64,000 nucleotides of DNA from Ricordea florida. Lineage: Eukaryota; Cnidaria; Anthozoa; Corallimorpharia; Ricordeidae. Every line of letters begins with the position of its first letter. The first letter of the stretch is position 1. The notes beneath the pieces are model-generated. The model worked only from the letters and a program-made list of their open reading frames with translations, did not search any database and was not told where the DNA came from. The position numbers and the translations under genes are program-made. The DNA is taken from NCBI GenBank assembly GCA_949710005.1, contig OX453272.1, positions 18,024,262 to 18,088,261 of the forward strand, read 5' to 3'. Positions 1 through 64,000 of the stretch are shown one piece after another.

Positions 1-6
1 TAAACG

Positions 7-14
7 CGCATGCG
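7..14. repeat. 8 bp palindrome CGCATGCG at the phase start (representative copy)
   Basis: CGCATGCG lies in the most CG-rich stretch of an otherwise AT-rich monomer, at positions 7-14. In D monomers 11T is C, which destroys this palindrome and creates ACGCGT at positions 10-15, for example at 5365-5370. All 19 D monomers in the window have the change and I found it in no other type. Confidence 0.75.
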
Positions 15-150
15 TAGTAGCAAAAAGTCTAAGCCTTAAGAATTACATTGAAATTAAATCGTTCTAATCAAAATTTTATTCGAAACTTAAAACTTATGGT
101 AAAATGTGCTATTACAACTAAAGAGAACATTAAAAATGCTTACATAACTT

Positions 151-158
151 ACTTACCT
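151..158 (-). other. Consensus 5' splice-donor match on the minus strand (representative copy)
   Basis: On the minus strand this reads AGGTAAGT, a full match to the core of the eukaryotic splice-donor consensus, and it recurs in essentially every monomer. One hybrid monomer (34503) alters the flanking base. With no exon, promoter or acceptor identified, this is a sequence match only. Confidence 0.2.
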
Positions 159-507: not shown

Positions 508-595
508 TAGCATAAGTCGGCAAAGTGTCAGAATTGCAAAGATTCTGCAAAATAGGATAAAATGACCTTTATTCCAAGGGGGTAGGTTCGTGTCT
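508..595 (+). promoter_or_regulatory. Weak RNA polymerase III A-box and B-box-like pair (representative copy)
   Basis: TAGCATAAGTCGG at 508-520 resembles the tRNA A box, and GGTTCGTGTCT at 585-595 resembles the B box consensus GGTTCGANNCC with one clear mismatch. The spacing of about 64 bases is longer than in an ordinary tRNA gene but is tolerated in some tRNA-derived elements. Both motifs repeat in the same place in the array. Several types change the A-box-like part (509G, 513A, 517A), while the B-box-like part is nearly constant. No tRNA cloverleaf can be drawn, so this may be chance or a trace of a tRNA-derived ancestor. Confidence 0.15.
529..547. repeat. Inverted repeat with 6 bp arms (representative copy)
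   Basis: CAGAAT at 529-534 pairs with ATTCTG at 542-547 across 7 bases. Most monomers keep it. D monomers usually have 543C, which breaks one pair, and the three tagged B monomers have caaatattctg, which changes only the loop. The loss in D is regular and coincides with the amplified D-E arrays. Confidence 0.6.
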
Positions 596-1190
596 TAAAC
601 GCGCATGCGTAGTGGCAAAAAGTCTAAGCCTTAAGAATTACATTGAAATTAAATCGTTCTAATCAAAATTTAATTCGAAACTTAAAACGTATGGTAAAAT
701 GTGCTATTACAACTAAAGAGAACATTAAAAATGCTTCATAACTTACTTACCTAGAAGACGGTCGTCCTGCCCATACAAATCTCTTATAATGCATTTTGAC
801 CAAAATCTGTGAGGCTGAGTTTCTTGACAGCCAGCTGCATGTATCGTATCTCAGCGTCTAGAATGAGTATAAACACGAGATAAAGTGCGTTACAAAGTAC
901 ATATTAAATGCTACAACACGGTGAAAGCGGCATATTGATCGGCCTTTTGTGTAATAAGCACTCGTTTGATAAAGTTTAGTACTGTGTGAGCAGTCTTCTT
1001 TACAATTAGCTGACTTAAGTAAATATATCCACAGCTAAACTACAATATAATCACGAATCACAATCAATCTAATTTTATTCTTAAGTATTGCCTTTTGCGG
1101 TATGGCATAAGACGGAAAAGTGTCAGAATTGCAAAGATTCTGCAAAATAGGATAAAATGACCTTTATTCCAAGGGGGTAGGTTCGTGTCT
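596..1190 (+). repeat. E-type monomer with compensating one-base insertion
   Basis: This is an E-type monomer: it has the one-base loss at monomer position 142 (atgcttcataac instead of atgcttacataac). It also has one extra A in ccatacaaatctc, so its length is back to 595 bp. It carries a private T-to-A change in the AT tract near position 77. It sits before an A monomer, as do the E monomers at 21416 and 51157, so the E-to-A junction is a recurring one. Confidence 0.85.
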
Positions 1191-4100
1191 TAAACGCGCA
1201 TGCGTAGTGGCAAAAGGTCTAAGCCTTAAGAATTACATTGAAATTAAATCGTTCTAATCAAAATTTTATTCGAAACTTTAAACGTATGGTAAAATGTGCT
1301 ATTACAACTAAAGAGAACATTAAAAATGCTTACATAACTTACTTACCTAGAAGACGGTCGTCCTGCCCATACAATCTCTTATAATGCATTTTGACCAAAA
1401 TCTGTGAGGCTGAGTTTCTTGACAGCCAGCTGCATGTATCGTATCTCAGCGTCTAGAATGAGTATAAACACGAGATAAAGTGCGTTACAAAGTAAATATT
1501 AAATGCCACAACACGGTGAAAGCGGCATATTGATCGGCCTTTTGTTTAATAAGCACTCGTTTGATAAAGTTTAGTACTGTGTGAGCAGTCTTCTTTACAA
1601 TTAGCTGACTTAAGTAAATATATCCACAGCTAAACTACAATATAATCACGAATCACAATCAATCTAATTTTATTCTTAAATATTGCCTTTTGCGGTATAG
1701 CAAAAATCGGCAAAGTGTCAGAATTGCAAAGATTCTGCAAAATAGGATAAAATGACCTTTATTTCAAGGGGGTAGGTTCGTGTCTTAAACGCGCATGCGT
1801 AGTAGCAAAAAGTCTAAGCCTTAAGAATTACATTGAAATTAAATCGTTCTAATCAAAATTTTATTCGAAACTTAAAACTTATGGTAAAATGTGCTATTAC
1901 AACTAAAGAGAACATTAAAAATGCTTACATAACTTACTTACCTAGAAGACGGTCGTCCTGCCCATACAATCTCTTATAATGCATTTTGACCAAAATCTGT
2001 GAGGCTGAGTTTCTTGACAGCCAGCTGCATGTATCGTATCTCAGCGTCTAGAATGAGTATAAACACGAGATAAAGTGCGTTACAAAGTAAATATTAAATG
2101 CCACAACACGGTGAAAGCGGCATATTGATCGGCCTTTTGTTTAATAAGCACTCGTTTGATAAAGTTTAGTACTGTGTGAGCAGTCTTCTTTACAATTAGC
2201 TGACTTAAGTAAATATATCCACAGCTAAACTACAATATAATCACGAATCACAATCAATCTAATTTTATTCTTAAATATTGCCTTTTGCGGTATAGCATAA
2301 GTCGGCAAAGTGTCAGAATTGCAAAGATTCTGCAAAATAGGATAAAATGACCTTTATTTCAAGGGCGTAGGTTCGTGTCTTAAACGCGCATGCGTAGTAG
2401 CAAAAAGTCTAAGCCTTAAGAATTACATTGAAATTAAATCGTTCTAATCAAAATTTTATTCGAAACTTAAAACTTATGGTAAAATGTGCTATTACAACTA
2501 AAGAGAACATTAAAAATGCTTACATAACTTACTTACCTAGAAGACGGTCTTCCTGCCCATACAATCTATTATAATGCACTTTGACCAAAATCTGTGAGGC
2601 TGAGTTTCTTGACAGCCAGCTGCATGTATCGTATCTCAGCGTCTAGAATGAGTATAAACACGAGATAAAGTACGTTACAAAGTACATATTAAATGCTACA
2701 ACACGGTGAAAGCGGCATATTAATCGGCAATCTGTGTAATAAGCACTCGTTTGATAAAGTTTAGTACTGTGTGAGCAGTCTTCTTTACAATTAGCTGACT
2801 TAAGTAAATATATGCACAGCTAAACTACAATATAATCACGAATCACAATCAATCTAATTTTATTCTTAAGTATTGCCTTTTGCGGTATGGCATAAGACGG
2901 AAAAGTGTCAGAATTGCAAAGATTCTGCAAAATAGGATAAAATGACCTTTATTCCAAGGGGGTAGGTTCGTGTCTTAAACGCGCATGCGTAGTGGCAAAA
3001 GGTCTAAGCCTTAAGAATTACATTGAAATTAAATCGTTCTAATCAAAATTTTATTCGAAACTTTAAACGTATGGTAAAATGTGCTATTACAACTAAAGAG
3101 AACATTAAAAATGCTTACATAACTTACTTACCTAGAAGACGGTCGTCCTGCCCATACAATCTCTTATAATGCATTTTGACCAAAATCTGTGAGGCTGAGT
3201 TTCTTGACAGCCAGCTGCATGTATCGTATCTCAGCGTCTAGAATGAGTATAAACACGAGATAAAGTGCGTTACAAAGTAAATATTAAATGCCACAACACG
3301 GTGAAAGCGGCATATTGATCGGCCTTTTGTTTAATAAGCACTCGTTTGATAAAGTTTAGTACTGTGTGAGCAGTCTTCTTTACAATTAGCTGACTTAAGT
3401 AAATATATCCACAGCTAAACTACAATATAATCACGAATCACAATCAATCTAATTTTATTCTTAAATATTGCCTTTTGCGGTATAGCAAAAATCGGCAAAG
3501 TGTCAGAATTGCAAAGATTCTGCAAAATAGGATAAAATGACCTTTATTTCAAGGGGGTAGGTTCGTGTCTTAAACGCGCATGCGTAGTAGCAAAAAGTCT
3601 AAGCCTTAAGAATTACATTGAAATTAAATCGTTCTAATCAAAATTTTATTCGAAACTTAAAACTTATGGTAAAATGTGCTATTACAACTAAAGAGAACAT
3701 TAAAAATGCTTACATAACTTACTTACCTAGAAGACGGTCGTCCTGCCCATACAATCTCTTATAATGCATTTTGACCAAAATCTGTGAGGCTGAGTTTCTT
3801 GACAGCCAGCTGCATGTATCGTATCTCAGCGTCTAGAATGAGTATAAACACGAGATAAAGTGCGTTACAAAGTAAATATTAAATGCCACAACACGGTGAA
3901 AGCGGCATATTGATCGGCCTTTTGTTTAATAAGCACTCGTTTGATAAAGTTTAGTACTGTGTGAGCAGTCTTCTTTACAATTAGCTGACTTAAGTAAATA
4001 TATCCACAGCTAAACTACAATATAATCACGAATCACAATCAATCTAATTTTATTCTTAAATATTGCCTTTTGCGGTATAGCAAAAATCGGCAAAGTGTCA

Positions 4101-4760
4101 GAATTGCAAAGATTCTGCAAAATAGGATAAAATGACCTTTATTTCAAGGGGGTAGGTTCGTGTCTTAAACGCGCATGCGTAGTAGCAAAAAGTCTAAGCC
4201 TTAAGAATTACATTGAAATTAAATCGTTCTAATCAAAATTTTATTCGAAACTTAAAACTTATGGTAAAATGTGCTATTACAACTAAAGAGAACATTAAAA
4301 ATGCTTACATAACTTACTTACCTAGAAGACGGTCGTCCTGCCCATACAATCTCTTATAATGCATTTTGACCAAAATCTGTGAGGCTGAGTTTCTTGACAG
4401 CCAGCTGCATGTATCGTATCTCAGCGTCTAGAATGAGTATAAACACGAGATAAAGTGCGTTACAAAGTAAATATTAAATGCCACAACACGGTGAAAGCGG
4501 CATATTGATCGGCCTTTTGTTTAATAAGCACTCGTTTGATAAAGTTTAGTACTGTGTGAGCAGTCTTCTTTACAATTAGCTGACTTAAGTAAATATATCC
4601 ACAGCTAAACTACAATATAATCACGAATCACAATCAATCTAATTTTATTCTTAAATATTGCCTTTTGCGGTATAGCATAAGTCGGCAAAGTGTCAGAATT
4701 GCAAAGATTCTGCAAAATAGGATAAAATGACCTTTATTTCAAGGGGGTAGGTTCGTGTCT
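1191..4760 (+). repeat. Six-monomer lead-in block, copy 1 (A B C A B B)
   Basis: Monomers start at 1191 (A), 1786 (B with 581C), 2381 (C), 2976 (A), 3571 (B head with an A-like 513A/516A tail) and 4166 (B). The C monomer has a private change that turns ggtcgtcc into ggtcttcc. The same six monomers in the same order, with the same private change, recur at 35098-38667, immediately before a 9-mer unit in both places. This is therefore the left part of a long segmental duplication. Confidence 0.88.
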
Positions 4761-7700
4761 TAAACGCGCATGCGTAGTAGCAAAAAGTCTAAGCCTTAAG
4801 AATTACATTGAAATTAAATCGTTCTAATCAAAATTTTATTCGAAACTTAAAACTTATGGTAAAATGTGCTATTACAACTAAAGAGAACATTAAAAATGCT
4901 TACATAACTTACTTACCTAGAAGACGGTCGTCCTGCCCATACAATCTATTATAATGCACTTTGACCAAAATCTGTGAGGCTGAGTTTCTTGACAGCCAGC
5001 TGCATGTATCGTATCTCAGCGTCTAGAATGAGTATAAACACGAGATAAAGTACGTTACAAAGTACATATTAAATGCTACAACACGGTGAAAGCGGCATAT
5101 TAATCGGCAATCTGTGTAATAAGCACTCGTTTGATAAAGTTTAGTACTGTGTGAGCAGTCTTCTTTACAATTAGCTGACTTAAGTAAATATATGCACAGC
5201 TAAACTACAATATAATCACGAATCACAATCAATCTAATTTTATTCTTAAGTATTGCCTTTTGCGGTATGGCATAAGACGGAAAAGTGTCAGAATTGCAAA
5301 GATTCTGCAAAATAGGATAAAATGACCCTTATTCCAAGGGGGTAGGTTCGTGTCTTAAACGCGCACGCGTAGTGGCAAAAGGTCTAAGCCTTAAGAATTA
5401 CATTGAAATTAAATCGTTCTAATCAAAATTTTATTCGAAACTTTAAACGTATGGTAAAATGTGCTATTACAACTAAAGAGAACATTAAAAATGCTTACAT
5501 AACTTACTTACCTAGAAGACGGTCGTCCTGCCCATACAATCTCTTATAATGCATTTTGACCAAAATCTGTGAGGCTGAGTTTCTTGACAGCCAGCTGCAT
5601 GTATCGTATCTCAGCGTCTAGAATGAGTATAAACACGAGATAAAGTACGTTACAAAGTACATATTAAATGCTACAACACGGTGAAAGCGGCATATTAATC
5701 GGCAATCTGTGTAATAAGCACTCGTTTGATAAAGTTTAGTACTGTGTGAGCAGTCTTCTTTACAATTAGCTGACTTAAGTAAATATATGCACAGCTAAAC
5801 TACAATATAATCACGAATCACAATCAATCTAATTTTATTCTTAAGTATTGCCTTTTGCGGTATAGCATAAGTCGGAAAAGTGTCAGAATTGCAAAGACTC
5901 TGCAAAATAGGATAAAATGACCTTTATTCCAAGGGGGTAGGTTCGTGTCTTAAACGCGCATGCGTAGTGGCAAAAAGTCTAAGCCTTAAGAATTACATTG
6001 AAATTAAATCGTTCTAATCAAAATTTTATTCGAAACTTAAAACGTATGGTAAAATGTGCTATTACAACTAAAGAGAACATTAAAAATGCTTCATAACTTA
6101 CTTACCTAGAAGACGGTCGTCCTGCCCATACAATCTCTTATAATGCATTTTGACCAAAATCTGTGAGGCTGAGTTTCTTGACAGCCAGCTGCATGTATCG
6201 TATCTCAGCGTCTAGAATGAGTATAAACACGAGATAAAGTGCGTTACAAAGTACATATTAAATGCTACAACACGGTGAAAGCGGCATATTGATCGGCCTT
6301 TTGTGTAATAAGCACTCGTTTGATAAAGTTTAGTACTGTGTGAGCAGTCTTCTTTACAATTAGCTGACTTAAGTAAATATATCCACAGCTAAACTACAAT
6401 ATAATCACGAATCACAATCAATCTAATTTTATTCTTAAGTATTGCCTTTTGCGGTATGGCATAAGACGGAAAAGTGTCAGAATTGCAAAGATTCTGCAAA
6501 ATAGGATAAAATGACCTTTATTCCAAGGGGGTAGGTTCGTGTCTTAAACGCGCATGCGTAGTGGCAAAAGGTCTAAGCCTTAAGAATTACATTGAAATTA
6601 AATCGTTCTAATCAAAATTTTATTCGAAACTTAAAACTTATGGTAAAATGTGCTATTACAACTAAAGAGAACATTAAAAATGCTTACATAACTTACTTAC
6701 CTAGAAGACGGTCGTCCTGCCCATACAATCTCTTATAATGCACTTTGACCAAAATCTGTGAGGCTGAGTTTCTTGACAGCCAGCTGCATGTATCGTATCT
6801 CAGCGTCTAGAATGAGTATAAACACGAGATAAAGTACGTTACAAAGTACATATTAAATGCTACAACACGGTGAAAGCGGCATATTAATCGGCAATCTGTG
6901 TAATAAGCACTCGTTTGATAAAGTTTAGTACTGTGTGAGCAGTCTTCTTTACAATTAGCTGACTTAAGTAAATATATCCACAGCTAAACTACAATATAAT
7001 CACGAATCACAATCAATCTAATTTTATTCTTAAGTATTGCCTTTTGCGGTATGGCATAAGACGGAAAAGTGTCAGAATTGCAAAGATTCTGCAAAATAGG
7101 ATAAAATGACCTTTATTCCAAGGGGGTAGGTTCGTGTCTTAAACGCGCATGCGTAGTGGCAAAAGGTCTAAGCCTTAAGAATTACATTGAAATTAAATCG
7201 TTCTAATCAAAATTTTATTCGAAACTTTAAACGTATGGTAAAATGTGCTATTACAACTAAAGAGAACATTAAAAATGCTTACATAACTTACTTACCTAGA
7301 AGACGGTCGTCCTGCCCATACAATCTCTTATAATGCATTTTGACCAAAATCTGTGAGGCTGAGTTTCTTGACAGCCAGCTGCATGTATCGTATCTCAGCG
7401 TCTAGAATGAGTATAAACACGAGATAAAGTGCGTTACAAAGTAAATATTAAATGCCACAACACGGTGAAAGCGGCATATTGATCGGCCTTTTGTTTAATA
7501 AGCACTCGTTTGATAAAGTTTAGTACTGTGTGAGCAGTCTTCTTTACAATTAGCTGACTTAAGTAAATATATCCACAGCTAAACTACAATATAATCACGA
7601 ATCACAATCAATCTAATTTTATTCTTAAATATTGCCTTTTGCGGTATAGCAAAAATCGGCAAAGTGTCAGAATTGCAAAGATTCTGCAAAATAGGATAAA

Positions 7701-10114
7701 ATGACCTTTATTTCAAGGGGGTAGGTTCGTGTCTTAAACGCGCATGCGTAGTAGCAAAAAGTCTAAGCCTTAAGAATTACATTGAAATTAAATCGTTCTA
7801 ATCAAAATTTTATTCGAAACTTAAAACTTATGGTAAAATGTGCTATTACAACTAAAGAGAACATTAAAAATGCTTACATAACTTACTTACCTAGAAGACG
7901 GTCGTCCTGCCCATACAATCTCTTATAATGCATTTTGACCAAAATCTGTGAGGCTGAGTTTCTTGACAGCCAGCTGCATGTATCGTATCTCAGCGTCTAG
8001 AATGAGTATAAACACGAGATAAAGTGCGTTACAAAGTAAATATTAAATGCCACAACACGGTGAAAGCGGCATATTGATCGGCCTTTTGTTTAATAAGCAC
8101 TCGTTTGATAAAGTTTAGTACTGTGTGAGCAGTCTTCTTTACAATTAGCTGACTTAAGTAAATATATCCACAGCTAAACTACAATATAATCACGAATCAC
8201 AATCAATCTAATTTTATTCTTAAATATTGCCTTTTGCGGTATAGCATAAGTCGGCAAAGTGTCAGAATTGCAAAGATTCTGCAAAATAGGATAAAATGAC
8301 CTTTATTTCAAGGGCGTAGGTTCGTGTCTTAAACGCGCATGCGTAGTAGCAAAAAGTCTAAGCCTTAAGAATTACATTGAAATTAAATCGTTCTAATCAA
8401 AATTTTATTCGAAACTTAAAACTTATGGTAAAATGTGCTATTACAACTAAAGAGAACATTAAAAATGCTTACATAACTTACTTACCTAGAAGACGGTCGT
8501 CCTGCCCATACAATCTATTATAATGCACTTTGACCAAAATCTGTGAGGCTGAGTTTCTTGACAGCCAGCTGCATGTATCGTATCTCAGCGTCTAGAATGA
8601 GTATAAACACGAGATAAAGTACGTTACAAAGTACATATTAAATGCTACAACACGGTGAAAGCGGCATATTAATCGGCAATCTGTGTAATAAGCACTCGTT
8701 TGATAAAGTTTAGTACTGTGTGAGCAGTCTTCTTTACAATTAGCTGACTTAAGTAAATATATGCACAGCTAAACTACAATATAATCACGAATCACAATCA
8801 ATCTAATTTTATTCTTAAGTATTGCCTTTTGCGGTATGGCATAAGACGGAAAAGTGTCAGAATTGCAAAGATTCTGCAAAATAGGATAAAATGACCTTTA
8901 TTCCAAGGGGGTAGGTTCGTGTCTTAAACGCGCATGCGTAGTGGCAAAAGGTCTAAGCCTTAAGAATTACATTGAAATTAAATCGTTCTAATCAAAATTT
9001 TATTCGAAACTTTAAACGTATGGTAAAATGTGCTATTACAACTAAAGAGAACATTAAAAATGCTTACATAACTTACTTACCTAGAAGACGGTCGTCCTGC
9101 CCATACAATCTCTTATAATGCATTTTGACCAAAATCTGTGAGGCTGAGTTTCTTGACAGCCAGCTGCATGTATCGTATCTCAGCGTCTAGAATGAGTATA
9201 AACACGAGATAAAGTGCGTTACAAAGTAAATATTAAATGCCACAACACGGTGAAAGCGGCATATTGATCGGCCTTTTGTTTAATAAGCACTCGTTTGATA
9301 AAGTTTAGTACTGTGTGAGCAGTCTTCTTTACAATTAGCTGACTTAAGTAAATATATCCACAGCTAAACTACAATATAATCACGAATCACAATCAATCTA
9401 ATTTTATTCTTAAATATTGCCTTTTGCGGTATAGCAAAAATCGGCAAAGTGTCAGAATTGCAAAGATTCTGCAAAATAGGATAAAATGACCTTTATTTCA
9501 AGGGGGTAGGTTCGTGTCTTAAACGCGCATGCGTAGTAGCAAAAAGTCTAAGCCTTAAGAATTACATTGAAATTAAATCGTTCTAATCAAAATTTTATTC
9601 GAAACTTAAAACTTATGGTAAAATGTGCTATTACAACTAAAGAGAACATTAAAAATGCTTACATAACTTACTTACCTAGAAGACGGTCGTCCTGCCCATA
9701 CAATCTCTTATAATGCATTTTGACCAAAATCTGTGAGGCTGAGTTTCTTGACAGCCAGCTGCATGTATCGTATCTCAGCGTCTAGAATGAGTATAAACAC
9801 GAGATAAAGTGCGTTACAAAGTAAATATTAAATGCCACAACACGGTGAAAGCGGCATATTGATCGGCCTTTTGTTTAATAAGCACTCGTTTGATAAAGTT
9901 TAGTACTGTGTGAGCAGTCTTCTTTACAATTAGCTGACTTAAGTAAATATATCCACAGCTAAACTACAATATAATCACGAATCACAATCAATCTAATTTT
10001 ATTCTTAAATATTGCCTTTTGCGGTATAGCATAAGTCGGCAAAGTGTCAGAATTGCAAAGATTCTGCAAAATAGGATAAAATGACCTTTATTTCAAGGGG
10101 GTAGGTTCGTGTCT
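4761..10114 (+). repeat. 9-monomer higher-order repeat, copy 1 (5354 bp)
   Basis: Nine monomers in the order C D E F A B C A B start at 4761, 5356, 5951, 6545, 7140, 7735, 8330, 8925 and 9520. Eight are 595 bp and the E monomer is 594 bp, giving 5354 bp. Diagnostic marks are 568C in the first C, 11C in D, the base-142 deletion in E and 581C in the first B only. The next copy starts at 10115 with the same marks in the same places. At this level the two copies appear identical; I checked diagnostic sites, not a full alignment. Confidence 0.9.
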
Positions 10115-13100
10115 TAAACGCGCATGCGTAGTAGCAAAAAGTCTAAGCCTTAAGAATTACATTGAAATTAAATCGTTCTAATCAAAATTTTATTCGAAAC
10201 TTAAAACTTATGGTAAAATGTGCTATTACAACTAAAGAGAACATTAAAAATGCTTACATAACTTACTTACCTAGAAGACGGTCGTCCTGCCCATACAATC
10301 TATTATAATGCACTTTGACCAAAATCTGTGAGGCTGAGTTTCTTGACAGCCAGCTGCATGTATCGTATCTCAGCGTCTAGAATGAGTATAAACACGAGAT
10401 AAAGTACGTTACAAAGTACATATTAAATGCTACAACACGGTGAAAGCGGCATATTAATCGGCAATCTGTGTAATAAGCACTCGTTTGATAAAGTTTAGTA
10501 CTGTGTGAGCAGTCTTCTTTACAATTAGCTGACTTAAGTAAATATATGCACAGCTAAACTACAATATAATCACGAATCACAATCAATCTAATTTTATTCT
10601 TAAGTATTGCCTTTTGCGGTATGGCATAAGACGGAAAAGTGTCAGAATTGCAAAGATTCTGCAAAATAGGATAAAATGACCCTTATTCCAAGGGGGTAGG
10701 TTCGTGTCTTAAACGCGCACGCGTAGTGGCAAAAGGTCTAAGCCTTAAGAATTACATTGAAATTAAATCGTTCTAATCAAAATTTTATTCGAAACTTTAA
10801 ACGTATGGTAAAATGTGCTATTACAACTAAAGAGAACATTAAAAATGCTTACATAACTTACTTACCTAGAAGACGGTCGTCCTGCCCATACAATCTCTTA
10901 TAATGCATTTTGACCAAAATCTGTGAGGCTGAGTTTCTTGACAGCCAGCTGCATGTATCGTATCTCAGCGTCTAGAATGAGTATAAACACGAGATAAAGT
11001 ACGTTACAAAGTACATATTAAATGCTACAACACGGTGAAAGCGGCATATTAATCGGCAATCTGTGTAATAAGCACTCGTTTGATAAAGTTTAGTACTGTG
11101 TGAGCAGTCTTCTTTACAATTAGCTGACTTAAGTAAATATATGCACAGCTAAACTACAATATAATCACGAATCACAATCAATCTAATTTTATTCTTAAGT
11201 ATTGCCTTTTGCGGTATAGCATAAGTCGGAAAAGTGTCAGAATTGCAAAGACTCTGCAAAATAGGATAAAATGACCTTTATTCCAAGGGGGTAGGTTCGT
11301 GTCTTAAACGCGCATGCGTAGTGGCAAAAAGTCTAAGCCTTAAGAATTACATTGAAATTAAATCGTTCTAATCAAAATTTTATTCGAAACTTAAAACGTA
11401 TGGTAAAATGTGCTATTACAACTAAAGAGAACATTAAAAATGCTTCATAACTTACTTACCTAGAAGACGGTCGTCCTGCCCATACAATCTCTTATAATGC
11501 ATTTTGACCAAAATCTGTGAGGCTGAGTTTCTTGACAGCCAGCTGCATGTATCGTATCTCAGCGTCTAGAATGAGTATAAACACGAGATAAAGTGCGTTA
11601 CAAAGTACATATTAAATGCTACAACACGGTGAAAGCGGCATATTGATCGGCCTTTTGTGTAATAAGCACTCGTTTGATAAAGTTTAGTACTGTGTGAGCA
11701 GTCTTCTTTACAATTAGCTGACTTAAGTAAATATATCCACAGCTAAACTACAATATAATCACGAATCACAATCAATCTAATTTTATTCTTAAGTATTGCC
11801 TTTTGCGGTATGGCATAAGACGGAAAAGTGTCAGAATTGCAAAGATTCTGCAAAATAGGATAAAATGACCTTTATTCCAAGGGGGTAGGTTCGTGTCTTA
11901 AACGCGCATGCGTAGTGGCAAAAGGTCTAAGCCTTAAGAATTACATTGAAATTAAATCGTTCTAATCAAAATTTTATTCGAAACTTAAAACTTATGGTAA
12001 AATGTGCTATTACAACTAAAGAGAACATTAAAAATGCTTACATAACTTACTTACCTAGAAGACGGTCGTCCTGCCCATACAATCTCTTATAATGCACTTT
12101 GACCAAAATCTGTGAGGCTGAGTTTCTTGACAGCCAGCTGCATGTATCGTATCTCAGCGTCTAGAATGAGTATAAACACGAGATAAAGTACGTTACAAAG
12201 TACATATTAAATGCTACAACACGGTGAAAGCGGCATATTAATCGGCAATCTGTGTAATAAGCACTCGTTTGATAAAGTTTAGTACTGTGTGAGCAGTCTT
12301 CTTTACAATTAGCTGACTTAAGTAAATATATCCACAGCTAAACTACAATATAATCACGAATCACAATCAATCTAATTTTATTCTTAAGTATTGCCTTTTG
12401 CGGTATGGCATAAGACGGAAAAGTGTCAGAATTGCAAAGATTCTGCAAAATAGGATAAAATGACCTTTATTCCAAGGGGGTAGGTTCGTGTCTTAAACGC
12501 GCATGCGTAGTGGCAAAAGGTCTAAGCCTTAAGAATTACATTGAAATTAAATCGTTCTAATCAAAATTTTATTCGAAACTTTAAACGTATGGTAAAATGT
12601 GCTATTACAACTAAAGAGAACATTAAAAATGCTTACATAACTTACTTACCTAGAAGACGGTCGTCCTGCCCATACAATCTCTTATAATGCATTTTGACCA
12701 AAATCTGTGAGGCTGAGTTTCTTGACAGCCAGCTGCATGTATCGTATCTCAGCGTCTAGAATGAGTATAAACACGAGATAAAGTGCGTTACAAAGTAAAT
12801 ATTAAATGCCACAACACGGTGAAAGCGGCATATTGATCGGCCTTTTGTTTAATAAGCACTCGTTTGATAAAGTTTAGTACTGTGTGAGCAGTCTTCTTTA
12901 CAATTAGCTGACTTAAGTAAATATATCCACAGCTAAACTACAATATAATCACGAATCACAATCAATCTAATTTTATTCTTAAATATTGCCTTTTGCGGTA
13001 TAGCAAAAATCGGCAAAGTGTCAGAATTGCAAAGATTCTGCAAAATAGGATAAAATGACCTTTATTTCAAGGGGGTAGGTTCGTGTCTTAAACGCGCATG

Positions 13101-15468: not shown

Positions 15469-16063
15469 TAAACGCGCATGCGTAGTAGCAAAAAGTCTAA
15501 GCCTTAAGAATTACATTGAAATTAAATCGTTCTAATCAAAATTTTATTCGAAACTTAAAACTTATGGTAAAATGTGCTATTACAACTAAAGAGAACATTA
15601 AAAATGCTTACATAACTTACTTACCTAGAAGACGGTCGTCCTGCCCATACAATCTATTATAATGCACTTTGACCAAAATCTGTGAGGCTGAGTTTCTTGA
15701 CAGCCAGCTGCATGTATCGTATCTCAGCGTCTAGAATGAGTATAAACACGAGATAAAGTACGTTACAAAGTACATATTAAATGCTACAACACGGTGAAAG
15801 CGGCATATTAATCGGCAATCTGTGTAATAAGCACTCGTTTGATAAAGTTTAGTACTGTGTGAGCAGTCTTCTTTACAATTAGCTGACTTAAGTAAATATA
15901 TGCACAGCTAAACTACAATATAATCACGAATCACAATCAATCTAATTTTATTCTTAAGTATTGCCTTTTGCGGTATGGCATAAGACGGAAAAGTGTCAGA
16001 ATTGCAAAGATTCTGCAAAATAGGATAAAATGACCCTTATTCCAAGGGGGTAGGTTCGTGTCT
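15469..16063 (+). repeat. C-type monomer opening a truncated third 9-mer
   Basis: C monomer with 568C, the version that opens each 9-mer unit. It is followed by D and E as expected, but F, A, B, C, A and B do not follow. The D-E pair is repeated instead. The corresponding monomer at 44022 does the same. Confidence 0.88.
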
Positions 16064-53535: not shown

Positions 53536-54129
53536 TAAACGCGCATGCGTAGTGGCAAAAAGTCTAAGCCTTAAGAATTACATTGAAATTAAATCGTTCT
53601 AATCAAAATTTTATTCGAAACTTAAAACGTATGGTAAAATGTGCTATTACAACTAAAGAGAACATTAAAAATGCTTCATAACTTACTTACCTAGAAGACG
53701 GTCGTCCTGCCCATACAATCTCTTATAATGCATTTTGACCAAAATCTGTGAGGCTGAGTTTCTTGACAGCCAGCTGCATGTATCGTATCTCAGCGTCTAG
53801 AATGAGTATAAACACGAGATAAAGTGCGTTACAAAGTAAATATTAAATGCCACAACACGGTGAAAGCGGCATATTGATCGGCCTTTTGTTTAATAAGCAC
53901 TCGTTTGATAAAGTTTAGTACTGTGTGAGCAGTCTTCTTTACAATTAGCTGACTTAAGTAAATATATCCACAGCTAAACTACAATATAATCACGAATCAC
54001 AATCAATCTAATTTTATTCTTAAATATTGCCTTTTGCGGTATAGCAAAAATCGGCAAAGTGTCAGAATTGCAAAGATTCTGCAAAATAGGATAAAATGAC
54101 CTTTATTTCAAGGGGGTAGGTTCGTGTCT
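53536..54129 (+). repeat. Hybrid monomer, E head and A tail (594 bp)
   Basis: The head is E (19G, 26A, 94G, base 142 deleted). The rest is A (305A, 317C, 356T, 490A, 513A, 516A, 574T). In the related segment at 23795-24983 the E and A monomers are separate and complete. This copy therefore looks like a deletion of exactly one monomer length by exchange between E and A. The partial monomer at 63646 has the same structure. Confidence 0.82.
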
Positions 54130-54176
54130 TAAACGCGCATGCGTAGTAGCAAAAAGTCTAAGCCTTAAGAATTACA

Positions 54177-54395
54177 TTGAAATTAAATCGTTCTAATCAA
54201 AATTTTATTCGAAACTTAAAACTTATGGTAAAATGTGCTATTACAACTAAAGAGAACATTAAAAATGCTTACATAACTTACTTACCTAGAAGACGGTCGT
54301 CCTGCCCATACAATCTCTTATATTGCATTTTGACCAAAATCTGTGAGGCTGAGTTTCTTGACAGCCAGCTGCATGTATCGTATCTCAGCGTCTAG
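54177..54395 (+). other. 72-codon open frame, third copy, not a gene
   Basis: Identical frame in the B monomer at 54130, within the 17-mer. It shows that this B subtype and its neighbours C, D, G and H were carried together into the 17-mer from the same source as the 10-mer. Confidence 0.9.
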
Positions 54396-57104
54396 AATGA
54401 GTATAAACACGAGATAAAGTGCGTTACAAAGTAAATATTAAATGCCACAACACGGTGAAAGCGGCATATTGATCGGCCTTTTGTTTAATAAGCACTCGTT
54501 TGATAAAGTTTAGTACTGTGTGAGCAGTCTTCTTTACAATTAGCTGACTTAAGTAAATATATCCACAGCTAAACTACAATATAATCACGAATCACAATCA
54601 ATCTAATTTTATTCTTAAATATTGCCTTTTGCGGTATAGCATAAGTCGGCAAAGTGTCAGAATTGCAAAGATTCTGCAAAATAGGATAAAATGACCTTTA
54701 TTTCAAGGGGGTAGGTTCGTGTCTTAAACGCGCATGCGTAGTAGCAAAAAGTCTAAGCCTTAAGAATTACATTGAAATTAAATCGTTCTAATCAAAATTT
54801 TATTCGAAACTTAAAACTTATGGTAAAATGTGCTATTACAACTAAAGAGAACATTAAAAATGCTTACATAACTTACTTACCTAGAAGACGGTCGTCCTGC
54901 CCATACAATCTATTATAATGCACTTTGACCAAAATCTGTGAGGCTGAGTTTCTTGACAGCCAGCTGCATGTATCGTATCTCAGCGTCTAGAATGAGTATA
55001 AACACGAGATAAAGTACGTTACAAAGTACATATTAAATGCTACAACACGGTGAAAGCGGCATATTAATCGGCAATCTGTGTAATAAGCACTCGTTTGATA
55101 AAGTTTAGTACTGTGTGAGCAGTCTTCTTTACAATTAGCTGACTTAAGTAAATATATGCACAGCTAAACTACAATATAATCACGAATCACAATCAATCTA
55201 ATTTTATTCTTAAGTATTGCCTTTTGCGGTATGGCATAAGACGGAAAAGTGTCAGAATTGCAAAGATTCTGCAAAATAGGATAAAATGACCTTTATTCCA
55301 AGGGGGTAGGTTCGTGTCTTAAACGCGCACGCGTAGTGGCAAAAGGTCTAAGCCTTAAGAATTACATTGAAATTAAATCGTTCTAATCAAAATTTTATTC
55401 GAAACTTTAAACGTATGGTAAAATGTGCTATTACAACTAAAGAGAACATTAAAAATGCTTACATAACTTACTTACCTAGAAGACGGTCGTCCTGCCCATA
55501 CAATCTCTTATAATGCATTTTGACCAAAATCTGTGAGGCTGAGTTTCTTGACAGCCAGCTGCATGTATCGTATCTCAGCGTCTAGAATGAGTATAAACAC
55601 GAGATAAAGTACGTTACAAAGTACATATTAAATGCTAAAACACGGTGAAAGCGGCATATTAATCGGCAATCTGTGTAATAAGCACTCGTTTGATAAAGTT
55701 TAGTACTGTGTGAGCAGTCTTCTTTACAATTAGCTGACTTAAGTAAATATATGCACAGCTAAACTACAATATAATCACGAATCACAATCAATCTAATTTT
55801 ATTCTTAAGTATTGCCTTTTGCGGTATAGCATAAGTCGGAAAAGTGTCAGAATTGCAAAGATTCTGCAAAATAGGATAAAATGACCTTTATTCCAAGGGG
55901 GTAGGTTCGTGTCTTAAACGCGCATGCGTAGTGGCAAAAAGGCTAAGCCTTAAGAATTACATTGAAATTAAATCGTTCTAATCAAAATTTTATTCGAAAC
56001 TTAAAACGTATGGTAAAATGTGCTATTACAACTAAAGAGAACATTAAAAATGCTTACATAACTTACTTACCTAGAAGACGGTCGTCCTGCCCATACAATC
56101 TCTTATAATGCACTTTGACCAAAATCTGTGAGGCTAAGTTTCTTGACAGCCAGCTGCATGTATCGTATCTCAGCGTCTAGAATGAGTATAAACACGAGAT
56201 AAAGTACGTTACAAAGTACATATTAAATGCTACAACACGGTGAAAGCGGCATATTGATCGGCCTTTTGTGTAATAAGCACTCGTTTGATAAAGTTTAGTA
56301 CTGTGTGAGCAGTCTTCTTTACAATTAGCTGACTTAAGTAAATATATCCACAGCTAAACTACAATATAATCACGAATAACAATCAATCTAATTTTATTCT
56401 TAAGTATTGCCTTTTGCGGTATGGCATAAGACGGAAAAGTGTCAGAATTGCAAAGATTCTGCAAAATAGGATAAAATGACCTTTATTCCAAGGGGGTAGG
56501 TTCGTGTCTTAAACGCGCATGCGTAGTGGCAAAAAGTCTAGGCCTTAAGAATTACATTGAAATTAAATCGTTCTAATCAAAATTTTATTCGAAACTTTAA
56601 ACGTATGGTAAAATGTGCTATTACAACTAAAGAGAACATTAAAAATGCTTACATAACTTACTTACCTAGAAGACGGTCGTCCTGCCCATACAATCTCTTA
56701 TAATGCATTTTGACCAAAATCTGTGAGGCTGAGTTTCTTGACAGCCAGCTGCATGTATCGTATCTCAGCGTCTAGAATGAGTATAAACACGAGATAAAGT
56801 GCGTTACAAAGTACATATTAAATGCCACAACACGGTGAAAGCGGCATATTGATCGGCCTTTTGTTTAATAAGCACTCGTTTGATAAAGTTTAGTACTGTG
56901 TGAGCAGTCTTCTTTACAATTAGCTGACTTAAGTAAATATATCCACAGCTAAACTACAATATAATCACGAATCACAATCAATCTAATTTTATTCTTAAAT
57001 ATTGCCTTTTGCGGTATAGCATAAATCGGCAAAGTGTCAGAATTGCAAAGATTCTGCAAAATAGGATAAAATGACCTTTATTCCAAGGGGGTAGGTTCGT
57101 GTCT

Positions 57105-57699
57105 TAAACGCGCATGCGTAGTGGCAAAAAGTCTAGGCCTTAAGAATTACATTGAAATTAAATCGTTCTAATCAAAATTTTATTCGAAACTTAAAACGTA
57201 TGGTAAAATGTGGTATTACAACTAAAGAGAACATTAAAAATGCTTACATAACTTACTTACCTAGAAGACGGTCGTCCTGCCCATACAATCTCTTATAATG
57301 CATTTTGACCAAAATCTGTGAGGCTGAGTTTCTTGACAGCCAGCTGCTTGTATCGTATTTCAGCGTCTAGAATGAGTATAAACACGAGATAAAGTGCGTT
57401 ACAAAGTACATATTAAATGCTACAACACGGTGAAAGCGGCATATTAATCGGCAATCTGTGTAATAAGCACTCGTTTGATAAAGTTTAGTACTGTGTGAGC
57501 AGTCTTCTTTACAATTAGCTGACTTAAGTAAATATATGCACAGCTAAACTACAATATAATCACGAATCACAATCAATCTAATTTTATTCTTAAGTATTGC
57601 CTTTTGCGGTATAGCATAAGTCGGAAAAGTGTCAGAATTGCAAAGACTCTGCAAAATAGGATAAAATGACCTTTATTCCAAGGGGGTAGGTTCGTGTCT
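57105..57699 (+). repeat. Hybrid monomer, I head and D tail
   Basis: The I changes 32G, 109G, 244T and 255T are followed by a tail with 509A, 517T, 521A and 543C (gactctg), the last being typical of D. The I copy at 27959 has 543T. The next monomer is E and then D-E dimers follow, so this looks like the point where a G-H-I segment was joined in register to a D-E array. Confidence 0.75.
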
Positions 57700-58293
57700 T
57701 AAACGCGCATGCGTAGTGGCAAAAAGTCTAAGCCTTAAGAATTACATTGAAATTAAATCGTTCTAATCAAAATTTTATTCGAAACTTAAAACGTATGGTA
57801 AAATGTGCTATTACAACTAAAGAGAACATTAAAAATGCTTCATAACTTACTTACCTAGAAGACGGTCGTCCTGCCCATACAATCTCTTATAATGCATTTT
57901 GACCAAAATCTGTGAGGCTGAGTTTCTTGACAGCCAGCTGCATGTATCGTATCTCAGCGTCTAGAATGAGTATAAACACGAGATAAAGTGCGTTACAAAG
58001 TACATATTAAATGCTACAACACGGTGAAAGCGGCATATTGATCGGCCTTTTGTGTAATAAGCACTCGTTTGATAAAGTTTAGTACTGTGTGAGCAGTCTT
58101 CTTTACAATTAGCTGACTTAAGTAAATATATCCACAGCTAAACTACAATATAATCACGAATCACAATCAATCTAATTTTATTCTTAAGTATTGCCTTTTG
58201 CGGTATGGCATAAGACGGAAAAGTGTCAGAATTGCAAAGATTCTGCAAAATAGGATAAAATGACCTTTATTCCAAGGGGGTAGGTTCGTGTCT

Positions 58294-61200
58294 TAAACGC
58301 GCACGCGTAGTGGCAAAAGGTCTAAGCCTTAAGAATTACATTGAAATTAAATCGTTCTAATCAAAATTTTATTCGAAACTTTAAACGTATGGTAAAATGT
58401 GCTATTACAACTAAAGAGAACATTAAAAATGCTTACATAACTTACTTACCTAGAAGACGGTCGTCCTGCCCATACAATCTCTTATAATGCATTTTGACCA
58501 AAATCTGTGAGGCTGAGTTTCTTGACAGCCAGCTGCATGTATCGTATCTCAGCGTCTAGAATGAGTATAAACACGAGATAAAGTACGTTACAAAGTACAT
58601 ATTAAATGCTACAACACGGTGAAAGCGGCATATTAATCGGCAATCTGTGTAATAAGCACTCGTTTGATAAAGTTTAGTACTGTGTGAGCAGTCTTCTTTA
58701 CAATTAGCTGACTTAAGTAAATATATGCACAGCTAAACTACAATATAATCACGAATCACAATCAATCTAATTTTATTCTTAAGTATTGCCTTTTGCGGTA
58801 TAGCATAAGTCGGAAAAGTGTCAGAATTGCAAAGACTCTGCAAAATAGGATAAAATGACCTTTATTCCAAGGGGGTAGGTTCGTGTCTTAAACGCGCATG
58901 CGTAGTGGCAAAAAGTCTAAGCCTTAAGAATTACATTGAAATTAAATCGTTCTAATCAAAATTTTATTCGAAACTTAAAACGTATGGTAAAATGTGCTAT
59001 TACAACTAAAGAGAACATTAAAAATGCTTCATAACTTACTTACCTAGAAGACGGTCGTCCTGCCCATACAATCTCTTATAATGCATTTTGACCAAAATCT
59101 GTGAGGCTGAGTTTCTTGACAGCCAGCTGCATGTATCGTATCTCAGCGTCTAGAATGAGTATAAACACGAGATAAAGTGCGTTACAAAGTACATATTAAA
59201 TGCTACAACACGGTGAAAGCGGCATATTGATCGGCCTTTTGTGTAATAAGCACTCGTTTGATAAAGTTTAGTACTGTGTGAGCAGTCTTCTTTACAATTA
59301 GCTGACTTAAGTAAATATATCCACAGCTAAACTACAATATAATCACGAATCACAATCAATCTAATTTTATTCTTAAGTATTGCCTTTTGCGGTATGGCAT
59401 AAGACGGAAAAGTGTCAGAATTGCAAAGATTCTGCAAAATAGGATAAAATGACCTTTATTCCAAGGGGGTAGGTTCGTGTCTTAAACGCGCACGCGTAGT
59501 GGCAAAAGGTCTAAGCCTTAAGAATTACATTGAAATTAAATCGTTCTAATCAAAATTTTATTCGAAACTTTAAACGTATGGTAAAATGTGCTATTACAAC
59601 TAAAGAGAACATTAAAAATGCTTACATAACTTACTTACCTAGAAGACGGTCGTCCTGCCCATACAATCTCTTATAATGCATTTTGACCAAAATCTGTGAG
59701 GCTGAGTTTCTTGACAGCCAGCTGCATGTATCGTATCTCAGCGTCTAGAATGAGTATAAACACGAGATAAAGTACGTTACAAAGTACATATTAAATGCTA
59801 CAACACGGTGAAAGCGGCATATTAATCGGCAATCTGTGTAATAAGCACTCGTTTGATAAAGTTTAGTACTGTGTGAGCAGTCTTCTTTACAATTAGCTGA
59901 CTTAAGTAAATATATGCACAGCTAAACTACAATATAATCACGAATCACAATCAATCTAATTTTATTCTTAAGTATTGCCTTTTGCGGTATAGCATAAGTC
60001 GGAAAAGTGTCAGAATTGCAAAGACTCTGCAAAATAGGATAAAATGACCTTTATTCCAAGGGGGTAGGTTCGTGTCTTAAACGCGCATGCGTAGTGGCAA
60101 AAAGTCTAAGCCTTAAGAATTACATTGAAATTAAATCGTTCTAATCAAAATTTTATTCGAAACTTAAAACGTATGGTAAAATGTGCTATTACAACTAAAG
60201 AGAACATTAAAAATGCTTCATAACTTACTTACCTAGAAGACGGTCGTCCTGCCCATACAATCTCTTATAATGCATTTTGACCAAAATCTGTGAGGCTGAG
60301 TTTCTTGACAGCCAGCTGCATGTATCGTATCTCAGCGTCTAGAATGAGTATAAACACGAGATAAAGTGCGTTACAAAGTACATATTAAATGCTACAACAC
60401 GGTGAAAGCGGCATATTGATCGGCCTTTTGTGTAATAAGCACTCGTTTGATAAAGTTTAGTACTGTGTGAGCAGTCTTCTTTACAATTAGCTGACTTAAG
60501 TAAATATATCCACAGCTAAACTACAATATAATCACGAATCACAATCAATCTAATTTTATTCTTAAGTATTGCCTTTTGCGGTATGGCATAAGACGGAAAA
60601 GTGTCAGAATTGCAAAGATTCTGCAAAATAGGATAAAATGACCTTTATTCCAAGGGGGTAGGTTCGTGTCTTAAACGCGCACGCGTAGTGGCAAAAGGTC
60701 TAAGCCTTAAGAATTACATTGAAATTAAATCGTTCTAATCAAAATTTTATTCGAAACTTTAAACGTATGGTAAAATGTGCTATTACAACTAAAGAGAACA
60801 TTAAAAATGCTTACATAACTTACTTACCTAGAAGACGGTCGTCCTGCCCATACAATCTCTTATAATGCATTTTGACCAAAATCTGTGAGGCTGAGTTTCT
60901 TGACAGCCAGCTGCATGTATCGTATCTCAGCGTCTAGAATGAGTATAAACACGAGATAAAGTACGTTACAAAGTACATATTAAATGCTACAACACGGTGA
61001 AAGCGGCATATTAATCGGCAATCTGTGTAATAAGCACTCGTTTGATAAAGTTTAGTACTGTGTGAGCAGTCTTCTTTACAATTAGCTGACTTAAGTAAAT
61101 ATATGCACAGCTAAACTACAATATAATCACGAATCACAATCAATCTAATTTTATTCTTAAGTATTGCCTTTTGCGGTATAGCATAAGTCGGAAAAGTGTC

Positions 61201-61860
61201 AGAATTGCAAAGACTCTGCAAAATAGGATAAAATGACCTTTATTCCAAGGGGGTAGGTTCGTGTCTTAAACGCGCATGCGTAGTGGCAAAAAGTCTAAGC
61301 CTTAAGAATTACATTGAAATTAAATCGTTCTAATCAAAATTTTATTCGAAACTTAAAACGTATGGTAAAATGTGCTATTACAACTAAAGAGAACATTAAA
61401 AATGCTTCATAACTTACTTACCTAGAAGACGGTCGTCCTGCCCATACAATCTCTTATAATGCATTTTGACCAAAATCTGTGAGGCTGAGTTTCTTGACAG
61501 CCAGCTGCATGTATCGTATCTCAGCGTCTAGAATGAGTATAAACACGAGATAAAGTGCGTTACAAAGTACATATTAAATGCTACAACACGGTGAAAGCGG
61601 CATATTGATCGGCCTTTTGTGTAATAAGCACTCGTTTGATAAAGTTTAGTACTGTGTGAGCAGTCTTCTTTACAATTAGCTGACTTAAGTAAATATATCC
61701 ACAGCTAAACTACAATATAATCACGAATCACAATCAATCTAATTTTATTCTTAAGTATTGCCTTTTGCGGTATGGCATAAGACGGAAAAGTGTCAGAATT
61801 GCAAAGATTCTGCAAAATAGGATAAAATGACCTTTATTCCAAGGGGGTAGGTTCGTGTCT
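58294..61860 (+). repeat. D-E dimer array, three dimers, inside the 17-mer
   Basis: D monomers start at 58294, 59483 and 60672; E monomers start at 58889, 60078 and 61267. Each dimer is 1189 bp, for a block of 3567 bp. The types are the same as in the six-dimer block at 44617, and an A monomer with ttatttgaaac follows in both cases. Confidence 0.9.
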
Positions 61861-64000
61861 TAAACGCGCATGCGTAGTGGCAAAAGGTCTAAGCCTTAAG
61901 AATTACATTGAAATTAAATCGTTCTAATCAAAATTTTATTTGAAACTTTAAACGTATGGTAAAATGTGCTATTACAACTAAAGAGAACATTAAAAATGCT
62001 TACATAACTTACTTACCTAGAAGACGGTCGTCCTGCCCATACAATCTCTTATAATGCATTTTGACCAAAATCTGTGAGGCTGAGTTTCTTGACAGCCAGC
62101 TGCATGTATCGTATCTCAGCGTCTAGAATGAGTATAAACACGAGATAAAGTGCGTTACAAAGTAAATATTAAATGCCACAACACGGTGAAAGCGGCATAT
62201 TGATCGGCCTTTTGTTTAATAAGCACTCGTTTGATAAAGTTTAGTACTGTGTGAGCAGTCTTCTTTACAATTAGCTGACTTAAGTAAATATATCCACAGC
62301 TAAACTACAATATAATCACGAATCACAATCAATCTAATTTTATTCTTAAATATTGCCTTTTGCGGTATAGCAAAAATCGGCAAAGTGTCAGAATTGCAAA
62401 GATTCTGCAAAATAGGATAAAATGACCTTTATTTCAAGGGGGTAGGTTCGTGTCTTAAACGCGCATGCGTAGTAGCAAAAAGTCTAAGCCTTAAGAATTA
62501 CATTGAAATTAAATCGTTCTAATCAAAATTTTATTCGAAACTTAAAACTTATGGTAAAATGTGCTATTACAACTAAAGAGAACATTAAAAATGCTTACAT
62601 AACTTACTTACCTAGAAGACGGTCGTCCTGCCCATACAATCTCTTATAATGCATTTTGACCAAAATCTGTGAGGCTGAGTTTCTTGACAGCCAGCTGCAT
62701 GTATCGTATCTCAGCGTCTAGAATGAGTATAAACACGAGATAAAGTGCGTTACAAAGTAAATATTAAATGCCACAACACGGTGAAAGCGGCATATTGATC
62801 GGCCTTTTGTTTAATAAGCACTCGTTTGATAAAGTTTAGTACTGTGTGAGCAGTCTTCTTTACAATTAGCTGACTTAAGTAAATATATCCACAGCTAAAC
62901 TACAATATAATCACGAATCACAATCAATCTAATTTTATTCTTAAATATTGCCTTTTGCGGTATAGCATAAGTCGGCAAAGTGTCAGAATTGCAAATATTC
63001 TGCAAAATAGGATAAAATGACCTTTATTTCAAGGGGGTAGGTTCGTGTCTTAAACGCGCATGCGTAGTAGCAAAAAGTCTAAGCCTTAAGAATTACATTG
63101 AAATTAAATCGTTCTAATCAAAATTTTATTCGAAACTTAAAACTTATGGTAAAATGTGCTATTACAACTAAAGAGAACATTAAAAATGCTTACATAACTT
63201 ACTTACCTAGAAGACGGTCGTCCTGCCCATACAATCTATTATAATGCACTTTGACCAAAATCTGTGAGGCTGAGTTTCTTGACAGCCAGCTGCATGTATC
63301 GTATCTCAGCGTCTAGAATGAGTATAAACACGAGATAAAGTACGTTACAAAGTACATATTAAATGCTAGAACACGGTGAAAGCGGCATATTAATCGGCAA
63401 TCTGTGTAATAAGCACTCGTTTGATAAAGTTTAGTACTGTGTGAGCAGTCTTCTTTACAATTAGCTGACTTAAGTAAATATATGCACAGCTAAACTACAA
63501 TATAATCACGAATCACAATCAATCTAATTTTATTCTTAAGTATTGCCTTTTGCGGTATGGCATAAGACGGAAAAGTGTCAGAATTGCAAAGATTCTGCAA
63601 AATAGGATAAAATGACCTTTATTCCAAGGGGGTAGGTTCGTGTCTTAAACGCGCATGCGTAGTGGCAAAAAGTCTAAGCCTTAAGAATTACATTGAAATT
63701 AAATCGTTCTAATCAAAATTTTATTCGAAACTTAAAACGTATGGTAAAATGTGCTATTACAACTAAAGAGAACATTAAAAATGCTTCATAACTTACTTAC
63801 CTAGAAGACGGTCGTCCTGCCCATACAATCTCTTATAATGCATTTTGACCAAAATCTGTGAGGCTGAGTTTCTTGACAGCCAGCTGCATGTATCGTATCT
63901 CAGCGTCTAGAATGAGTATAAACACGAGATAAAGTGCGTTACAAAGTAAATATTAAATGCCACAACACGGTGAAAGCGGCATATTGATCGGCCTTTTGTT
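61861..64000 (+). repeat. Start of a second 17-mer copy, cut by the window edge
   Basis: Monomers start at 61861 (A, ttatttgaaac), 62456 (B, caaatattctg), 63051 (C, gctagaac) and 63646 (E/A hybrid, first 355 bases only). All four match the start of the unit at 51751. The array continues beyond the window. Confidence 0.88.

What the first reader, a model, noticed from the sequence alone, without database searches (positions are those of the whole stretch)
1..64000. 64 kb of pure 595 bp satellite with multi-level higher-order structure
Every base belongs to one satellite family in one orientation, with no inserted element. Monomer types recur in ordered units of 2, 9, 10 and 17 monomers. Higher-order repeats are best known from primate alpha satellite; an array with several unit sizes side by side is informative about how such arrays evolve and may mark a centromere. 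I do not recognise the family, so it may be undescribed.
Basis: partly seen in the sequence, partly recalled or inferred. Interest (0 to 1): 0.8.

Follow-up and report, generated by a model that had tools for sequence, protein, structure and literature searches.

The report
595-bp satellite with higher-order repeats
The whole stretch is a non-coding 595-letter satellite repeated head to tail about 108 times, with repeat variants arranged in recurring ordered blocks, most likely left by recent unequal recombination; this is a clean example of a widespread kind of eukaryotic DNA, and a role at a centromere is untested.

Summary
108 head-to-tail monomers of 594-595 bp tile the window on one strand without insert or gap. 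The 106 complete monomers are 96.0-100% identical and fall into 31 exact types. Their order is far from random: 56 of 102 five-monomer words recur, against at most 2 in 1,000 shuffles. Units of 2, 9, 10 and 17 monomers are present, and one 11,131-bp stretch recurs unchanged 33.9 kb away. Two qualifications: the 10-mer is a 9-mer variant, and the 17-mer is complete only once. Some monomers at changes of unit length are exact hybrids of two other types, as unequal crossing-over predicts. No gene, RNA family or CENP-B box was found. CpG is not depleted, a hint of an unmethylated genome. Host, chromosome and centromere role cannot be decided here. Higher-order repeats are not a primate peculiarity: clear cases in 76 of 171 species in one survey (PMC4053949). 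New member of a known kind; low to moderate interest.

The parts
1..63999 (+). 108 head-to-tail monomers of the 595-bp satellite (106 complete); strand label arbitrary
   Evidence: tiling; alignment; lengths
594..6542 (+). 10-mer, copy 1 (m2-m11; types 0 1 2 3 1 4 5 6 7 8 in the numbering)
6543..11896 (+). 9-mer, copy 1 (m12-m20; types 9 1 2 10 1 5 6 7 8)
11897..17250 (+). 9-mer, copy 2 (m21-m29), same types in the same order as copy 1
17251..20818 (+). three dimers (m30-m35; types 7-11, 7-11, 7-12)
22008..34500 (+). stretch m38-m58 rich in singleton types, with two related blocks 10 monomers apart (types 18-10-19-20-21-22 and 25-10-26-20-21-27)
   Evidence: singletons
34501..40449 (+). 10-mer, copy 2 (m59-m68; first monomer type 28, the rest as copy 1)
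40450..45803 (+). 9-mer, copy 3 (m69-m77)
44615..51748 (+). six dimers of types 7-8 (m76-m87; the first is also the end of 9-mer copy 3)
51749..61858 (+). 17-mer (m88-m104): types 14 15 16 29 18 10 26 20 21 30 8, then three dimers 7-8
61859..64000 (+). start of a second 17-mer copy, cut by the window edge
   Evidence: exact match of 57,397-64,000 to 47,287-53,890
778..11908 (+). 11,131-bp stretch identical to 34,685-45,815
3569..4163 (+). hybrid monomer type 4 (m7; again at m64), the extra monomer of the 10-mer; equals left of type 5 (or 10) plus right of type 1; 43 parent pairs fit
53534..54127 (+). hybrid monomer type 29 (m91): left of type 17 plus right of type 1 (or 8 plus 14); in the sister block types 17 and 1 are separate neighbours (m41, m42)
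57103..57697 (+). hybrid monomer type 30 (m97): left of type 22 or 27, right of type 7, at the switch to dimers
33906..34500 (+). hybrid monomer type 27 (m58): left as type 30, right as type 1 (other right parents fit too), at the border to 10-mer copy 2

Best explanation
This is a piece of a eukaryotic satellite DNA array, non-coding, most likely heterochromatic, that grows, shrinks and homogenises by in-register unequal exchange between misaligned copies (unequal crossing-over between sister chromatids or homologues, with or without conversion). An older array whose monomers had diverged by about 2% was re-amplified recently, in blocks of 2 to about 19 monomers and with few new mutations, which left several unit sizes side by side. 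Shown: the tiling, the ordered units, the perfect long duplications, hybrid monomers at several changes of unit length, no recognisable gene. Inferred: that the host is a eukaryote, that crossing-over rather than rolling-circle re-insertion made most blocks, that the burst was recent, and the heterochromatic location. A centromere or pericentromere I put at about one in three; nothing here tests it.
For: Ordered recurrence far above shuffles. Perfect repeats up to 11,131 bp. 10 of 31 types are exact single-crossover hybrids of two others with at least two diagnostic sites on each side; 0 types in each of 100 controls with alleles shuffled by column. Over 24 common sites in the 31 types, linkage falls with distance round the monomer (mean r2 0.53 below 20 bp, 0.14 at 200-300 bp) and 150 of 276 site pairs show all four combinations. 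Type 29 is what fusing neighbours 17 and 1 would leave, type 9 what fusing 13 and 8 would leave, type 4 what duplicating across 1 and 5 would leave. Recombinants of adjacent types exist in 14 of 92 cases against 74 of 930 for all ordered pairs (adjacent against non-adjacent, one-sided Fisher p 0.0098). No neighbours are identical (0 of 105; order-shuffled mean 7.0, P 0.0005) and neighbours differ more than random pairs (13.3 against 11.8, P 0.0045), as amplification in multi-monomer units gives. A toy model of unequal exchange gave windows like this one in 48 of 393 with a late low-mutation burst and 6 of 374 without. No Rfam match, no tRNA, no Pfam match in six frames of the consensus, longest stop-free run 77 aa.
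Against: The control that shuffles alleles by column removes all linkage, so its 0 is a weak yardstick; gene conversion would make hybrids too; and a hybrid relation can be read either way, so some of the 10 types may be parents. Parents are often not unique (43 solutions for type 4). By a stricter rule only 4 of 31 types are better explained as mosaics by three or more sites. Of the 14 adjacent cases 10 concern type 4. The model is crude, I set its likeness criteria, they leave out the neighbour-difference ratio (mean at most 1.09 in any setting, observed 1.12), and windows of a run are not independent. None of the 12 settings had mean values fitting all observed ones. An assembly error in a 98%-identical array could mimic or hide block duplications; no reads were available.
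Confidence: 0.82

Rival explanations
1. The array is the functional centromere DNA of its chromosome: CENP-A (CenH3) nucleosomes sit on it and the higher-order homogenisation reflects centromere-linked recombination or drive. (This can hold together with the best explanation.)
For: [quoted passage not shown] 595 is close to three times 198, a plausible nucleosome spacing (arithmetic; the WW spectrum has a line at 198.3 bp, fifth among its peaks, no control made).
Against: No CENP-B box with up to 3 mismatches. No excess of secondary structure in the one monomer folded: z -0.83 as DNA, -0.13 and -0.49 as RNA. Variable sites are spread evenly, largest gap 61 bp, P 0.25, so no protected box is visible. 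The 9.8-10.7-bp WW band is 2.4-3.9 times the spectral mean; the top line is at 11.0 bp, 6.9 times. Satellites also lie in pericentric, subtelomeric, sex- or B-chromosome heterochromatin (recalled).
Confidence: 0.33
2. Blocks arose by excision of circles, rolling-circle replication and re-insertion, with crossing-over secondary.
For: Runs of identical dimers (six at 44,615-51,748) and two identical 9-mers in tandem are what a small circle would yield. The review PMC8122249 (passages) names this route.
Against: Several changes of unit length coincide with hybrid monomers joined in register, which misaligned exchange explains without circles; no run is longer than six units here. Neither point excludes circles.
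Confidence: 0.2
3. Part of the higher-order pattern is an assembly artefact.
For: Perfect repeats up to 11.1 kb in a 98%-identical array; no read support could be examined.
Against: Every 12-kb stretch of the window is unique within it and 95.8% of 10-kb stretches are, so long accurate reads could resolve it if the array outside the window holds no further copies; several block borders carry specific hybrid monomers.
Confidence: 0.12
4. A tandem gene or spacer cluster (snRNA, spliced-leader RNA, 5S, histone, rDNA spacer repeats).
For: The minus strand carries a splice-donor-like CTAGGTAAGT in 107 of 108 monomers and the consensus has three AATAAA on that strand.
Against: No Rfam family, rRNA included, at gathering scores in 64 kb; in bases 597-1900 the sub-threshold hits are three snoRNA-model matches at E 2.3-3; no tRNA; no Pfam match.
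Confidence: 0.04

Closest known systems
Primate alpha-satellite higher-order repeat arrays
   Same: Ordered monomer types repeated as multi-monomer units, unit copies 97-100% identical (PMC8122249 passages); one orientation and hybrid monomers at unit-length changes (recalled)
   Different: Monomer 595 bp instead of 171; monomers inside a unit are 96-100% alike here against about 70% in alpha satellite; no CENP-B box; no direct sequence comparison was made, no eukaryotic library being held
Drosophila ananassae-subgroup pericentromeric satellites (PMC11917152, passages)
   Same: Long complex-satellite arrays with higher-order structure, rarely interrupted by transposons
   Different: Monomers of 99-411 bp; sequence not compared
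Tribolium satellites (PMC13081366, passages)
   Same: Some long monomers (692, 704, 1264 bp), higher-order origin, likely (peri)centromeric, non-primate
   Different: Those arrays flip orientation in macro-dyads; this window has one orientation throughout. TmSat1 and TmSat2 go back to a unit of about 110 bp; no clear internal sub-repeat is seen here. Sequence not compared

Membership tests
Satellite DNA with higher-order repeats | Long head-to-tail array of a non-coding unit | tested here: met
   108 abutting monomers; no coding or RNA match; longest stop-free run 77 aa
Satellite DNA with higher-order repeats | Multi-monomer units more alike than the monomers inside them | tested here: met
   Monomers at lags 2, 9 and 57 identical in 19 of 104, 17 of 97 and 18 of 49 comparisons; adjacent ones in 0 of 105, with 13.3 differences on average; exact unit copies
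Satellite DNA with higher-order repeats | High genomic abundance and heterochromatic location | not testable with these tools
   No genome held for the window
Alpha satellite | About 171-bp monomer | tested here: not met
   Monomer 595 bp; no internal lag beyond shuffles (best 0.318, mean shuffle maximum 0.324)
Alpha satellite | CENP-B box in a subset of monomers | tested here: not met
   0 matches with up to 3 mismatches, 0.20 expected by chance
Centromeric satellite (functional) | CENP-A (CenH3) occupancy | not testable with these tools
   needs ChIP or CUT&RUN and FISH
Tribolium-type macro-dyad satellites | Inverted subarrays | tested here: not met
   all 108 monomers on one strand; within this window only
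rDNA, 5S or snRNA tandem clusters | A match to the RNA family in each unit | tested here: not met
   0 Rfam matches at gathering scores

The most novel reading that the evidence does not exclude
An undescribed satellite family, probably of an invertebrate, that underlies an active centromere and is caught in the middle of turnover: monomers only about 2% apart already carry a nested order of 2-, 9-, 10- and 17-mers, so that single exchange events can be read off site by site, a stage that alpha satellite passed long ago.
Probability: 0.25. Interest if true: 0.55.

Novelty: new member of a known kind. Interest (0 to 1): 0.3.

Why it matters
The array is unusually legible: with 46 variable columns and 31 types in 64 kb, gains and losses of single monomers leave hybrids whose possible parents can be listed, and a perfect 11-kb copy shows that blocks of about 19 monomers move as one. 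With read support and a second individual, rates and step sizes of unequal exchange could be measured directly. As a kind of object it is ordinary.

Tried and rejected
Identity of the host: no genome is held for the window. A 1,190-base query has no match in phages or plasmids (blastn, E up to 1). A conserved 22-mer has no exact match in viral or prokaryotic contigs, nor a 19-mer in viral contigs, nor a 20-mer in prokaryotic contigs. A 16-mer around the palindromic CGCATGCG found 7 viral stretches; the match there is 16-19 bases long, besides three stray matches of 12-14 bases, about what chance gives for a 16-mer in so large a collection (my estimate), so dropped.

Literature: five searches by monomer length gave 8 different papers holding '595 bp'; I looked at that passage in each. 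The Rosa paper has a 595-bp clone of three units of about 160 bp; the others are a read N50, a coding sequence (51), a plasmid size (52), a promoter distance (53), a coding exon (54), a human palindrome (55) and a plasmid flank (56). Searches listed higher-order-repeat papers (30 of 42 and 10 of 59 shown); of these I saw passages of five and one section of one of them.

Sub-structure: monomer built from a shorter repeat, rejected (one 25-nt pair at 72%). Conserved box, rejected (even spread of variable sites; site clustering P 0.41 and 0.71). Strong folding, rejected for the one monomer tried (1,189-1,783). Spliced-leader RNA gene on the minus strand, considered because of the donor-like CTAGGTAAGT; no Rfam support, not pursued.

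Models: steady-state unequal exchange with and without a mismatch penalty (12 settings) did not give few types and high divergence together; offsets of 1-5 monomers made neighbours too similar.
Full report
WHAT IS THERE. The window is one block of a 595-bp tandem repeat. One monomer used as a BLASTN query returns 108 abutting hits, all plus strand, from base 1 to 63,999, at 96.8-100% identity. There is no N and little change of composition (34.3-35.9% GC in 2-kb bins). Aligned, the monomers give 596 columns with 46 variable ones. m1 lacks its first two bases and m108 is cut at 356 bases, so 106 complete monomers were used for types; they are 595 or 594 bp long. Pairwise identity is 98.0% on average, 96.0% at the least. 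The 106 fall into 31 exact types; the two commonest occur 16 times each and 13 occur once. Type numbers here are those; numbers differently.

ORDER OF TYPES. From m2 the order is: 10-mer (0 1 2 3 1 4 5 6 7 8), 9-mer (9 1 2 10 1 5 6 7 8) twice, three dimers (7 11, 7 11, 7 12), 13 8, a stretch m38-m58 that holds 7 of the 13 singleton types, the 10-mer again with type 28 in first place, the 9-mer a third time, dimers 7-8 (six counting the end of that 9-mer), a 17-mer (14 15 16 29 18 10 26 20 21 30 8 and three dimers) and the start of its next copy. The 10-mer is the 9-mer plus one monomer, with a different first monomer and type 3 for type 10. The 17-mer is complete once; its second copy is cut by the window. 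1,000 shuffles of the monomer order never approach the observed recurrence of words of three or more. The longest perfect copies are 11,131 bp (778-11,908 and 34,685-45,815), 9,200, 8,244 and 6,604 bp.

HOW IT WORKS. Three signs point to in-register unequal exchange. First, linkage decays along the monomer and 150 of 276 pairs of common sites show all four combinations, so types are recombinants. Second, 10 of 31 types are exact two-parent hybrids, though parents are often not unique, some of the ten may themselves be parents, and the shuffled control is lenient; by a stricter rule 4 of 31 (types 9, 13, 27, 30) are better explained as mosaics by at least three sites, type 13 with one mismatch left. 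Third, hybrids sit at several changes of unit length: type 4 is the extra monomer of the 10-mer and equals the duplication product of neighbours 1 and 5 (break between columns 96 and 516); type 29 equals the deletion product of neighbours 17 and 1 (break between 144 and 308), which still stand apart as m41 and m42 in the sister block; type 30 joins the block before it to dimers; type 9, the first monomer of the 9-mer, equals the deletion product of 13 and 8, neighbours at m36 and m37. Recombinants of neighbours are about twice as common as those of type pairs overall (14 of 92 against 74 of 930; p 0.0098), a modest effect in which type 4 makes 10 of the 14.

TEMPO. No two neighbours are identical (0 of 105; shuffled mean 7.0) and neighbours differ more than random pairs (13.3 against 11.8), so recent growth was mostly by units of two or more. 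Few types at 2% divergence and perfect 11-kb copies suggest an older, diverged array followed by a recent burst. In a toy model, windows meeting four loose criteria that I set arose in 48 of 393 with a late low-mutation burst and in 6 of 374 without (40 settings, two seeds each; windows of a run are not independent; the neighbour-difference ratio was not a criterion and stayed below the observed 1.12 in every setting's mean). One search had shown that steady exchange alone, over 12 settings, misses the combination on average. This is support, not proof. No age can be given without a mutation rate.

WHAT IT IS NOT. No RNA family in 64 kb, nothing convincing below threshold in 597-1900, no tRNA, no Pfam domain in six frames of the consensus, longest stop-free run 77 aa. 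No CENP-B box. No clear internal sub-repeat, no excess folding in the one monomer tried, no invariant box beyond chance. CpG is present at 1.09 of expectation (20 sites), unusual for repeats of heavily CpG-methylated genomes (recalled); I take it as a hint of an unmethylated, perhaps invertebrate, host, no more.

WHERE IT COMES FROM. Unknown. No genome is held; nothing related was found in phages and plasmids by blastn or in viral and prokaryotic contigs by exact words (the 7 stretches match over 16-19 bases only). Those collections would not be expected to hold a eukaryotic satellite, so novelty of the family cannot be judged. Eight papers of an open-access library hold '595 bp' with the terms used; none means a satellite monomer. 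A search by length alone is weak.

COMPARISON. Higher-order repeats are common: clear cases in 76 of 171 species with Sanger data in PMC4053949 (section 11 read). Drosophila ananassae-group arrays (PMC11917152, passages) and Tribolium satellites (PMC13081366, passages) are non-primate parallels. Unequal crossover and saltatory amplification are named for human arrays (PMC9859433, passages; models in PMC8122249, passages). What stands out is the low divergence between monomers of a unit (about 2% against about 30% in alpha satellite), which makes single events legible.

VERDICT. Observation confirmed, with two qualifications on the 10- and 17-mers. Interpretation partly supported: satellite with higher-order structure yes; primate-like rarity no; centromere undecided (I give about 0.33). 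New member of a known kind; interest 0.3.

Noticed in passing
minus strand, 107 of 108 monomers, e.g. 745-754: A splice-donor-like CTAGGTAAGT occurs once in each monomer but m59; no RNA family supports a gene.
   Followed up: partly
alignment column 144 (e.g. m11, 5949-6542): A 1-bp deletion makes the 594-bp monomers and marks one class of types; it alternates in the dimers and is carried by hybrid type 29.
   Followed up: yes
alignment columns 345, 352, 353, 355: Four fully linked differences within 11 bp split the 107 monomers that reach there into 63 and 44; perhaps one multi-base event or a conversion from an unseen relative. Site clustering as a whole is not beyond chance.
   Followed up: partly
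each monomer, consensus positions 4-16, e.g. 597-609: A GC-rich AAACGCGCATGCG with a palindromic core, exact in 89 places, in a monomer of 35% GC whose CpG is kept at 1.09 of expectation.
   Followed up: partly
22008-34500: This stretch (m38-m58) holds 7 of the 13 singleton types, so it may be older than the flanking blocks.
   Followed up: no
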